This document shows positions 3,450 through 11,446 of a DNA stretch of 64,000 nucleotides, in pieces. Source of the stretch: Nitrosomonadales bacterium (GTDB taxonomy: Bacteria; Pseudomonadota; Gammaproteobacteria; Burkholderiales; Gallionellaceae); NCBI GenBank assembly GCA_016214695.1, contig JACRNY010000006.1, forward strand, positions 124,001-188,000, in the 5' to 3' direction. The notes beneath the pieces were generated by a model, which made no database searches, was not told the origin of the DNA, and was given only the letters and a program-made list of their open reading frames with translations. Position 1 is the first letter of the stretch. The number at the start of each line of letters is the position of its first letter. The position numbers and the translations under genes were made by a program.

Positions 3450-4070
3450 TTACTCAAGTTTGCCCAGACCCACCAGATACTGTTCGCTGCTGCGGTCGCG
3501 CGAGGCTTTCGGCTTGCGCGCGACCACTTTTGTGAAATGGTTACGCATCGCCTTCATGTAGCCCTCAAAACCGGCGCCCTGAAACACTTTCACCACAAAA
3601 AATCCACCCGGCGCGAGATGTTTGTCCGCAAAGTCCAGCGCCAGTTCCGCCAGATACATGGCGCGCGCCTGGTCCGCAGAAGTCACACCACTGATATTGG
3701 GGGCCATATCGGAAATTACAAGGCCGATACGCCTGCCTTCCAGCTTTTGTTCGAGCTGCGCCAGCACGCTGTCCTCGCGGAAGTCGCCCTGGATGAACTC
3801 CACGCGCGGCAGCGGTTGCAGGGGCAACAAGTCCAGCGCGATGATGCGCCCCTTTTCGCCCAGCTTCTGCGCCACCACCTGGCACCAGCCTCCGGGAGTC
3901 GCCCCCAGATCAACCACCACCATGCCCGGCTTGATCAGATGATCGCGCTCGTCGATCTCCTGCAGCTTGTAGGCAGCTCGCGAACGGTAGCCCTCCTTCT
4001 GCGCACGCTGCACATAGGGATCGTTCACATGCTCAAGCATCCATTGTTTGCTGGTTTTAGAGGCCTTCAT
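3450..4070 (-). CDS. rlmE: 23S rRNA 2'-O-methyltransferase RlmE
   Basis: Methylates the 2'-OH of U2552 in the A-loop of 23S rRNA, a late 50S assembly step. The 206 residues match the family. The K-D-K-E catalytic tetrad can be placed in [26 protein letters not shown] and SSEQYLVG; the SAM-binding motif is [11 protein letters not shown]. First gene of the ftsH operon and divergent from yhbY across 34 bp, so two opposed promoters must sit in or near that short gap. Confidence 0.97.
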
Positions 4071-9446: not shown

Positions 9447-9475
9447 ATTATAGCCGATTAGGGGTGCTGCATCAA
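9447..9475 (-). promoter_or_regulatory. Predicted sigma-70 promoter of carAB
   Basis: On the minus strand, TTGATG (9475-9470) is separated by 17 bp from a consensus TATAAT (9452-9447). This places the start of transcription near 9440, just before the leader stem-loop. Confidence 0.75.
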
Positions 9476-9577
9476 ACCGGAGCGCAAACCGCGCCGCTGC
9501 TGGAAACAAGCCATACCGTATAATCCCGCGCCGCCGCACGGGCAGCAGGCGAACAACCGCATCGGAGAAGCTTTAGC

Positions 9578-10111
9578 ATGATTGAAGTGATCATTTTGGC
9601 CGTCGCATTGAGCATGGACGCCTTCGCCGTCTCCATCGGTTTGGGTTCCAAGGGCCATAGCAGGGGATTGGGCCTGAAGGCCGGACTCTACTTCGGTGTC
9701 TTTCAGGCACTGATGCCTTTCATCGGCTATCTGGGCGGCAAAGGCGTGCTGGGTTGGGTGGAGGCCTATGCCCACTGGATCGCTTTCGGCCTGCTGGCGC
9801 TGATCGGCGGCAAGATGGTCCATGAAGGATTGAGCGACGACATCGAGGAAGACATCGAAGCCCTCACCCACAAGACCATGCTGCTGCTCGCCATCGCCAC
9901 CAGCATCGACGCCATGGCCGCCGGTTTCAGCCTGAATCTGCTGGACATCAATGCTTATCTGGCCTGCTTCATCATCGGCGTGACTACCTTTGTTTTCAGC
10001 TGGGTGGGCGTGCGCATCGGGGAGAAGAGCGGCACCTGGCTGGAGAGCAAGGCGGAGGTCTTCGGCGGAGTGGTATTGATCCTGATCGGGGTCAAGATGT
10101 TGGTGATGTGA
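9578..10111 (+). CDS. mntP: Manganese efflux pump MntP
   Basis: Inner-membrane exporter that protects against excess Mn(II). The 177 residues and about six hydrophobic helices match the family. The duplicated half-signature is visible: [13 protein letters not shown] near residue 10 and [12 protein letters not shown] near residue 108, each with the conserved Asp. A TATAAT-like hexamer (9519-9524) lies about 54 bp upstream without a clear -35. I could not recognise a yybP-ykoY manganese riboswitch in the leader, although mntP genes elsewhere often have one. Divergent from carA. Confidence 0.95.
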
Positions 10112-10120
10112 ACAACCCAA

Positions 10121-10179
10121 CCCGTTCGTGCTGATCCTTCGACTTCGCTCAGAACTAAAGGCAAGTCGAAGCATGAACG
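10121..10179. repeat. Copy B1 of the CCTTCGAC/GCTCAG dispersed repeat
   Basis: The unit starts CCGTTCGTGCTG and ends AGCATGAACG, so its outer ends are inverted (CGTTCGTGCT / AGCATGAACG), and it contains CCTTCGAC and GTCGAAG as inner arms. The same unit recurs at 25852-25940 and a shorter form at 22627-22660. It lies just after the mntP stop. Confidence 0.8.
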
Positions 10180-10212
10180 AATTCAGCGCTCCTCTCCTGA
10201 TGCAAAACCAAC

Positions 10213-10750
10213 ACCGTCGGGGGTTGCCCGACAGCAAGTTACCTTTCTTGTCTTGCCAAGAAAGGTAACCCAAAGAAGGCGCCCCCGGTACGCCGCCCCT
10301 TCGGGGTTCCCTGCGTTGCTCGACTGGTCAGGCGGCTGCGGAACTCGCGCTGCGCGCTCAGACAGTCCTCGCCGAAATCCCCTGACCAGCCTGCGCTACT
10401 CGGCGGACGTACAGGGGAGAAAATTCAAAAACCAAACCCCAAATGCAGTGAGGCGGGCAATGCCCGCCTCACAAAAAAAACGTGCGCAAAGCGCACACAA
10501 AACCGGCTCACCGCCTTTGACCTACCTTCCCCTGTGCGCCGCCGAGTAGCGCAGAACAGCCGGGGGTAGTCCGACGAATATGTTTGAGCACGTGACCGCG
10601 TAGCGGGTCGTGCGAGTTTATGAGGAGGCCCGGCTGTTCGAGCAACGCAGGGAACCCACGAAGTGGGCGGCGCACCGGGGGCGCCCTCTTTTGGTTACTT
10701 TTCTCGGCAAGACGAGAAAAGTGACTAGCTGTCGGGCTACCCCCGACGGT
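10213..10750. repeat. 538-bp element of two inverted copies of a structured unit
   Basis: This explains most of the 670-bp gap between mntP and the next gene. The outermost 22 bp (10213-10234 and 10729-10750) are inverted repeats with one mismatch. Homology continues inward for about 205-220 bp per arm: a 12-bp stem with loop TCTTGC, the string GGCGCCCCCGGT, a small TTCG-type hairpin, TTCCCTGCGTTGCTCGA, a third stem enclosing a variable loop, then CTGCGCTACTCGGCGG and ACAGGGGA. The centre (about 10425-10525) holds two more hairpins, one with 12-bp arms (10448-10472) and GTGCGC-AAA-GCGCAC. Short open frames inside show no protein signature. A dispersed non-autonomous element or structured RNA locus is likely; no transposase is adjacent. 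Confidence 0.85.
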
Positions 10751-10780
10751 TTTCGATGAGCATCACTATGAGCCCGTCCT

Positions 10781-11446
10781 TCACTCGCCGATTAATTCCC
10801 ATTGCGCGATTTCACCTTGGCATGCCTCTCCTAGCTTGAACTGCTGTACACCATATTTCGCCAACAAATCTGGGGACAAAGGAATCTGTGCGTGGGGATT
10901 ATGATAGACGGTCAAACTAACGCCCTCCGTCTTCTCACTGAGCACGCCAATAGCACTTATAGTTGTATTTGAATCGGAGGTCATCTTACGTCCACGCCCA
11001 TACTTCCGACCTATCTGATACGGGGCCTGCCGAGGACTATCAGGTACAGCAAATACAATAGATTCAAAGCCAAACATTGCAACTCGAACTTGATACTCAT
11101 CTATGTGTCGAGGGAGAAGCCCTCCCTCATAAACAATGAGTAATCCGGGATAGCTGCCGCGCGACCGAGACTTGATTTGTGGAACAGAATCGGAAATTTT
11201 CCCCCGCAACCGTTGCCCAGGGGTTATAGAAACAACACTTGGCTTTCCCATAGCCAATGCTTTTGCGGCGGCTTTCTCTGAAGAGTTAGGAGTAATTTCC
11301 TTGACTTCCGCCACCACCTTTTGGCCCCCAAGGAACACATCATAATCCGGCGATCTTGTAGCCCCAGTCTGTACGCGAGAAAACCTAATGCCCTTGCAAG
11401 CACAAAATTTTTCGAACAGCTTTTCAGAATGGGTGCGAAGTGGCAA
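10781..11446 (-). CDS. Orphan PD-(D/E)XK nuclease-like protein
   Basis: Not recognised as a named family. The 221-residue product has a plausible PD-(D/E)XK core: an N-terminal helix with Glu (HSEKLFEKF), then SPDYDVFL (P33-D34) and VVAEVKE (E47-x-K49), the metal-binding arrangement of many restriction and repair nucleases. No membrane segment or signal peptide. The start is TTG, with AAAGGG about seven bases upstream; no ATG fits. It begins 15 bp after the dapB stop and ends 30 bp from the inverted twin-unit element. Its base composition is more AT-rich than its neighbours, which suggests transfer. A solitary defence or restriction-like nuclease is possible; no methylase partner is nearby. 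Confidence 0.7.
   Translation of the reverse strand: MPLRTHSEKLFEKFCACKGIRFSRVQTGATRSPDYDVFLGGQKVVAEVKEITPNSSEKAAAKALAMGKPSVVSITPGQRLRGKISDSVPQIKSRSRGSYPGLLIVYEGGLLPRHIDEYQVRVAMFGFESIVFAVPDSPRQAPYQIGRKYGRGRKMTSDSNTTISAIGVLSEKTEGVSLTVYHNPHAQIPLSPDLLAKYGVQQFKLGEACQGEIAQWELIGE

What the first reader, a model, noticed from the sequence alone, without database searches (positions are those of the whole stretch)
10213..10750. Twin-unit inverted element with compensatory base changes between its halves
The two arms are diverged copies of one unit, placed head to head. In stem 1, left CTTG/CAAG is right CTCG/CGAG, and a C-G pair is replaced by T-A; in stem 2, left CCC-CTTCG-GGG gains an A-T pair on the right (CCCA-CTTCG-TGGG); stem 3 is CTGGTCAGG/CCTGACCAG on the left and AACAGCCGGG/CCCGGCTGTT on the right. 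Linkers (GGCGCCCCCGGT, CCCTGCGTTGCTCGA, CTGCGCTACTCGGCGG) are nearly invariant. Such covariation within one locus says that the folded form, as RNA or single-stranded DNA, was selected. The unit has the look of a dispersed repeat family, possibly mobilised in trans, or a structured RNA of unknown role.
Basis: partly seen in the sequence, partly recalled or inferred. Interest (0 to 1): 0.75.

Follow-up and report, generated by a model that had tools for sequence, protein, structure and literature searches.

The report
Swappable-gene platforms between hairpin-rich arms
The repeat in this window is an empty copy of a widespread DNA element in which two mirror-image, hairpin-rich arms bracket a slot that in other copies holds one foreign gene, and at the same chromosomal site different species carry different genes, so the element behaves as a gene-swapping platform with no enzyme of its own.

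Summary
The ~215-nt unit recurs 10-16 times per genome in this genus (Gallionellaceae relatives) and, by covariance model, in 40 of 272 sampled genera of the class. In the genus it nearly always comes as a convergent pair. The pair encloses either ~65-140 bp with two hairpins ('empty', as here) or 0.6-2.1 kb carrying one or two genes. 61 distinct spacers over 200 bp are almost all unrelated, and all 43 large cargoes tested are AT-richer than their flanks (GC 0.45 vs 0.59). At the same site in different species, 51 comparisons show different cargo, 18 cargo versus empty, and 1 the same cargo (a second turned up later). At three sites a relative has only the outermost hairpin, CCGTCGGGGGTNGCCCGACGG: an excision scar or an unused target.

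The compensatory changes are real (91 doubly changed cells against 24 expected), but wobble intermediates are nearly absent and arm types mix freely between left and right. This points to DNA palindromes rather than a conserved RNA. No transposase or recombinase was found in the cargo. I judge it a transposase-less gene-cassette platform whose contents turn over by recombination at the arms; the enzyme is unknown.

The parts
10203..10759 (.). whole element, empty form: two inverted arms and an 87-bp spacer
   Evidence: profile hits 10203-10428 (+) and 10516-10759 (-); inverted repeats
10216..10232 (+). left outermost hairpin P1, GTCGGG-GGTTG-CCCGAC; boundary of the element
   Evidence: sequence; pattern match G000:C7:134216; remains alone in unoccupied orthologous sites
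10238..10269 (+). left hairpin P2 (13-bp perfect stem)
   Evidence: I7
10283..10417 (+). left core: closing stem P3 with P4, P5 and P6 (subtype A)
   Evidence: covariance model R1 match, 147 bits; fold
10324..10389 (+). left P5/P6 stem, CTGGTCAGG...CCTGACCAG
   Evidence: I5; covariation
10448..10472 (+). inner hairpin of left arm, GTGAGGCGGGCA/TGCCCGCCTCAC
   Evidence: I8; the same position holds a hairpin in most copies
10482..10496 (-). inner hairpin of right arm, GTGCGCAAAGCGCAC
   Evidence: sequence; conserved in empty copies
10529..10680 (-). right core: P3, P4, P5 and P6 (subtype B, with the ACGACCCGC...GTCACGT extension)
   Evidence: covariance model R1 match, 136 bits; fold
10694..10725 (-). 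right hairpin P2
   Evidence: I9
10731..10747 (-). right outermost hairpin P1'
   Evidence: pattern match G000:C7:134729
10748..10764 (.). T-rich outer linker and remnant of an outer GTAG-type REP (GGTTTTCGATGAGCATC)
   Evidence: same junction GGTTTTCGATGGGTATC in L180

Best explanation
The feature is the empty form of a non-autonomous gene-cassette platform. Two convergent ~215-nt arms, each a chain of DNA hairpins (P1, P2, then a P3-closed domain with P4-P6, then an inner hairpin), bracket a slot. In many copies the slot holds one or two small foreign genes. SHOWN: the paired convergent layout, the diversity and low GC of the cargo, the same chromosomal sites carrying different cargo in different species, unoccupied orthologous sites that keep only the P1 hairpin, and no recombinase recognised among the cargo families listed. 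INFERRED: cassettes are exchanged in trans by recombination that uses the arms as portable ends. The default is RecA-type exchange between the near-identical arms of an incoming and a resident copy, which can also put cargo in either orientation. The whole element is lost by deletion between P1 and P1' at the base of the long palindrome. The arms are kept as near-perfect Watson-Crick palindromes at DNA level, by selection on both strands or by template-switch correction, not as one conserved RNA. The window copy is an empty platform between mntP and dapB.
For: Pairs are convergent in 88 of 110 neighbouring profile hits; most of the other 22 look like fragments of split or nested units. 61 distinct spacers over 200 bp with almost no mutual similarity (alignment of 50 ORFs at about 13% identity). 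Cargo GC 0.446 vs 0.587 in flanks, lower in 43/43. Same-site comparisons across species: 51 different cargo, 18 cargo/empty, 1 same, 52 both empty. At one site (L036 vs L068, flanks about 87%) the cargo and left arm are replaced while the right arm is kept. One cargo family found only twice in 60 genomes is inside elements at two different sites. Unoccupied sites with only P1: mntP site in L180, L187, L185 against occupied L186, L177 and window; L271 against L042 and L148; L272, L267, L264 against L280. Arm subtypes are independent between left and right (AB 17 vs 16.5 expected; P2 same type 18 vs 13.4). Double changes without wobble intermediates. No transposase or recombinase in the Pfam, PADLOC and NCBIfam lists of cargo (25 families shown of 32, 37 and 27).
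Against: No exchange was observed directly, and every comparison is between species, not strains. Arms at the same site are hardly more alike (85.3%) than random arms (83.4%), so whole-element replacement fits as well as exchange inside the arms. P1-only sites always have the same junction while none fused at P2 was found in 34 genomes, which could mean a specific enzyme. True solo units exist in more distant genera.
Confidence: 0.5

Rival explanations
1. A site-specific, integron-like system: an unidentified recombinase supplied in trans recognises the folded arms and recombines at P1 (GTCGGG-N5-CCCGAC). It excises the element to leave the P1 hairpin and inserts other elements into such hairpins.
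For: Unoccupied sites all carry CCGYCGGGGGTNGCCCGACGG. No deletion of the expected form fused at P2 was found, although P2 offers a longer direct repeat (0 in 34 genomes). The whole arm-to-arm segment appears inverted at one site (L048 vs L277). Arms are replaced along with cargo.
Against: No recombinase gene was found with the arms. The 5-nt centres of the two ends are inverted relative to each other, unlike a standard tyrosine-recombinase overlap. Slippage at the base of a long palindrome also predicts P1 junctions.
Confidence: 0.27
2. A MITE- or MIC-like DDE/HUH transposon family mobilised by a transposase elsewhere, with cargo in place of the transposase gene.
For: Inverted ends, dispersed copies, cargo without transposase, many genera.
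Against: No target-site duplication: the empty allele continues directly from P1 on both sides. The same sites are re-used across species. RAYT (PF01797) is absent from several element-bearing genomes, and no RAYT locus read carries a unit.
Confidence: 0.12
3. A structured RNA (terminator, 3'-UTR element or ncRNA) expressed from each arm; cargo association is secondary.
For: Complex, covarying fold with conserved single-stranded linkers; hairpins followed by T-rich linkers when read outward.
Against: Almost no wobble intermediates, contradictory strand polarity, convergent pairing, no Rfam match.
Confidence: 0.1

Closest known systems
Minimal mobile elements of Neisseria (definition in PMC3898611)
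   Same: A fixed site between conserved genes holds different whole-gene cassettes in different genomes; the cassettes carry no mobility gene; homologous recombination is the proposed exchange route.
   Different: Here the borders are not the conserved genes but a dispersed, hairpin-rich arm that recurs at many sites in one genome and in many genera, and the site can be empty or reduced to one hairpin.
Mobile insertion cassettes, MIC (PMC3913671)
   Same: Cargo gene between inverted repeats, no transposase.
   Different: MIC ends are short transposase-type inverted repeats (24 bp in the cited case), usually with target duplication; here the arms are ~215 nt, modular and structured, with no target duplication.
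REPINs/BIMEs and TIRtrons (GTAG and CGTC REPs; PMC3733652)
   Same: Inverted pairs of palindromes in intergenic DNA, a CGTC-tagged end hairpin, A-rich linkers; ordinary GTAG REPs often form the next outer layer.
   Different: REPs are 20-40 bp; this unit is ~215 nt with a branched core; no RAYT gene read carries it; it encloses varied cargo genes.
Integron gene cassettes
   Same: One small, AT-rich, diverse gene per cassette; structured recombination sites; no enzyme in the cassette.
   Different: Cassettes sit singly at many sites, not in an array; two inverted arms per cassette instead of one attC; no integrase found with them.
Correia elements of Neisseria (PMC3898611)
   Same: Small dispersed inverted-repeat elements without transposase; Correia repeat-enclosed elements are known from the literature.
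   Different: Correia elements are 100-155 bp with 26-bp ends and TA duplication.

Membership tests
REP/REPIN mobilised by RAYT | 20-40 bp palindrome tagged GTAG or CGTC | tested here: not met
   unit ~215 nt with branched core; only its end hairpin P1 resembles a CGTC-tagged palindrome (PMC3733652)
REP/REPIN mobilised by RAYT | copies flank a RAYT gene | tested here: not met
   no unit at E <= 10 in the RAYT loci read, L206-L235; RAYT absent from element-bearing G004, G032, G021 and G014
Mobile insertion cassette (MIC) | cargo between inverted repeats, no transposase inside | tested here: met
Mobile insertion cassette (MIC) | target-site duplication | tested here: not met
   occupied and unoccupied alleles share flanks directly up to P1
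Mobile insertion cassette (MIC) | ends match a known transposase-bearing IS | tested here: inconclusive
   no transposase in cargo family lists; no plasmid or phage match; ISfinder not available
Integron gene cassette | cassettes in an array next to an integrase gene and attI | tested here: not met
   single elements at dispersed sites
Integron gene cassette | attC site with R'/R'' core | not tested
   no attC model was run
Minimal mobile element | different gene cassettes at one conserved site | tested here: met
   51 different-cargo comparisons at shared sites
Minimal mobile element | incorporation solely by homologous recombination in flanking conserved genes | tested here: inconclusive
   one site with one arm kept and the other replaced; P1 junctions suggest another route at others
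Structured RNA family | match to a curated family | tested here: not met
   no Rfam match at gathering score, only sub-threshold chance matches
Structured RNA family | covariation with wobble intermediates on a consistent strand | tested here: not met
   91 double vs 10 one-sided cells, 8 of them at one pair; G.T and A.C conflict between stems
Structured RNA family | transcribed | not testable with these tools
   no RNA data

The most novel reading that the evidence does not exclude
A new, integron-like gene-capture system of Proteobacteria: folded DNA arms with a P1 hairpin attachment site, worked by an unknown recombinase in trans, that shuttles single foreign genes (some defence-related) in and out of fixed chromosomal platforms across many genera.
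Probability: 0.25. Interest if true: 0.92.

Novelty: new variant of a known kind. Interest (0 to 1): 0.7.

Why it matters
Foreign genes usually arrive with an obvious vehicle. Here is a recurrent, easily recognised address for single-gene cargo that carries no vehicle of its own; the arm itself is found in about one in seven sampled genera of the class. It gives a way to list hidden cargo genes (some match phage-defence families, most match nothing) and makes testable how small genes enter and leave chromosomes without an integrase. It is also a case in which strong covariation need not mean a functional RNA.

Tried and rejected
Known RNA family: no Rfam match. RAYT-mobilised REP: no RAYT locus read carries the unit, although two RAYTs (L224, L225) are flanked by ordinary REPs of the kind that also forms outer layers of some elements. 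Plasmid or phage borne: no blastn match. Distinct left and right ends of a transposon (the A/B types first looked like this): pairing is random. Strand polarity: an early count in P2 and P5 suggested the outward strand, but on re-alignment it rests largely on single inherited positions and conflicts with P3, so it was dropped. Deletion by slippage in P2: no such product found. Cargo as a pure defence set: only 6 of 40 proteins match PADLOC at 1e-6, plus a GapS1 relative and three HEPN proteins among 50 ORFs, with no background rate measured, so no enrichment is claimed. Literature searches by words and by sequence found no description; bioRxiv and most subscription papers are not held.

Full report
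OBSERVATION. The twin-unit inverted element is present and slightly longer than reported, 10203-10759. Each arm reads from outside inward: P1 hairpin GTCGGG-N5-CCCGAC; P2 hairpin GTTACYTTTCTTG/CAAGAAARGTAAC; linker; a core closed by P3 (CCCCGGTGCGCCGCC/GGCGGCGCACAGGGG) with P4 and the branched P5/P6; an A-rich linker; and an inner GC hairpin. In the window the 87-bp spacer is just the two inner hairpins back to back. The arms differ in subtype (left 'A', right 'B').

FAMILY. Blastn finds 19 matches in the own 2.66-Mb genome, and 37 of 61 genomes in the relatives search (own genome included) have copies, typically 5-16 matches each. A collection scan names carriers as Gallionella, Sideroxydans, Sideroxyarcus, Ferrigenium, other Nitrosomonadales, Uliginosibacterium and Lysobacterales. 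A covariance model of the core (R1) finds it in 45 of 369 genomes drawn evenly from the class, 40 of 272 genera. The convergent pairing is seen there too, although some distant genera have solitary units.

COVARIATION. In 24 diverse cores 97% of cells pair (shuffled 85%), 15 pairs show double changes, and 91 cells are doubly changed against 24 in shuffles; sliding the partner by one column destroys the signal. Their pattern is unusual: apart from one position, one-sided (G-U) intermediates are almost missing. G.T and A.C mismatches point to opposite strands in different stems. Folding energy, corrected by shuffles, does not prefer one strand (z -3.6 vs -3.8). A conserved RNA should leave wobble pairs on one strand (general knowledge). 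Near-perfect complementarity on both strands is what a DNA palindrome would show, kept by selection or by hairpin-templated correction. This is inference; wobble rates of true RNAs in these genomes were not measured.

PAIRS AND CARGO. Of 110 neighbouring profile hits, 88 are plus-then-minus, and most of the rest look like fragments of split or nested units. Spacers are of two kinds: about 64-140 bp with two hairpins, or 600-2101 bp with one or two genes (rarely more), with only a few in between. The inner hairpins mostly remain next to the arms when cargo is present. Cargo proteins are unrelated to each other. They include RiboL-PSP-HEPN proteins, DUF4145, a Mrr-type restriction enzyme, a BstA/KilA-N-type protein, a GapS1 relative, PADLOC candidates, DUF3800, XRE regulators with lipoproteins, and many without any family; 6 of 40 match PADLOC at 1e-6. 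Twenty further loci gave the same picture. Cargo GC is 0.446 against 0.587 in flanks, lower in 43 of 43. The Pfam, PADLOC and NCBIfam lists show no transposase, integrase or recombinase; each list shows only its first 25 families of 32, 37 and 27.

FIXED SITES, CHANGING CONTENT. Grouping elements by their flanking DNA puts 68 of 100 into 13 shared site groups (single linkage may merge neighbouring sites). Among 122 same-site comparisons between species, 51 have different cargo, 18 cargo versus empty, 1 the same cargo and 52 both empty. These comparisons are not independent: large site groups contribute many pairs. A later fetch added one further same-cargo pair (L373 and L050). Arms at the same site are barely more alike than random arms (85.3 vs 83.4%), so arms turn over as well. 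In L036 versus L068 the cargo and left arm are replaced and the right arm kept. In L048 versus L277 the arms appear inverted with new cargo. One cargo family occurs twice in 60 genomes, both times inside elements, at different sites.

UNOCCUPIED SITES. Between mntP and dapB, where the window element lies, L186 and L177 carry elements; L187, L185 and L180 carry only a hairpin CCGTCGGGGGTNGCCCGACGG (in L187 with flanks that match L186 base for base nearly throughout); L182, L191, L192 and L193 have neither. The same occurs at two other sites: L271 versus L042 and L148; and L272, L267 and L264 versus L280. The lone hairpin equals P1 of one end closed by the outer bases of the other. There is no target-site duplication. 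It is either the scar of a deletion between P1 and P1' or the target used for insertion. No product of the form expected for fusion at P2, which has longer repeats, was seen in 34 genomes; deletion at the base of a palindrome and a P1-specific enzyme both predict this. The own genome also holds one lone hairpin (G000:C2:984175) and one deletion remnant (G000:C2:908921, L041).

LAYERS. The next DNA outward is often another dispersed palindrome, such as GTAG-type REPs, and differs between species at one site. Where RAYT genes in the genus have flanking repeats they are ordinary REPs or other repeats, not this unit, and several element-bearing genomes lack RAYTs.

MECHANISM. Left and right arm types combine at random, arms are mosaic, and cargo has no enzyme. 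The most economical reading is exchange in trans between near-identical arms, plus loss at P1. A dedicated recombinase acting at P1 is the strongest rival. Neither was observed; both make clear predictions at strain level.

COMPARISON. It works like a minimal mobile element (PMC3898611), but with portable, structured borders. It resembles a mobile insertion cassette (PMC3913671) but lacks the target duplication. It shares a CGTC-type end with REPs (PMC3733652) but is far larger and not RAYT-linked. No earlier description was found in the papers held; absence from unheld papers cannot be claimed.

Noticed in passing
window 10781-11446: A 221-aa ORF with no Pfam family sits between the element and dapB in this genome; L177 has a different stretch there and L186 none, so the DNA just outside the platform also varies.
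   Followed up: partly
G000:C2:908921-908998 (L041:5900-6010): Deletion remnant: left P1 half fused to the outer part of a right arm at the microhomology GGGGTCGCC, at a site that holds varied cargo in other species.
   Followed up: yes
L224, L225: RAYT genes flanked by inverted GTAG-type REPs (CGTAGGTCGGGTTAGCGCAGCGTAACCCGAC; CGTAGGGCGCAATAACCAACGGGCATTGCGCC); the second type also forms outer layers of some elements.
   Followed up: partly
L177:2591-2849 and L038:4296-4548: Arms in which the P5 domain is replaced by an unrelated long stem (CTCGAAAGTCTGCAAACAAGCGG / CTCGATATTTCGCAAACAAGCGG), so the core is modular.
   Followed up: no
L042, L036, L053, L148 and others, cargo edge: A shared stretch close to GTCAAAACAATTCGACTCCGGTACATT lies just inside the inner hairpin of many cargo-bearing elements; possibly a promoter or terminator.
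   Followed up: no
L335, L336, L348, L349, L351, L352: Solitary units in distant genera often lie with their inner end facing the 3' end of a neighbouring gene (rough count by eye, about 15 of 24).
   Followed up: partly
window 9458-10273: A 271-aa reading frame (-) starts inside the left arm and overlaps mntP; probably a spurious ORF that annotation could list as a hypothetical protein.
   Followed up: no
L277:1986-2113 and 3538-3612: At a shared site, an extra outer pair of palindromes (CCCTCTCCC type) is present in one species and absent in another, suggesting nested palindrome layers.
   Followed up: no
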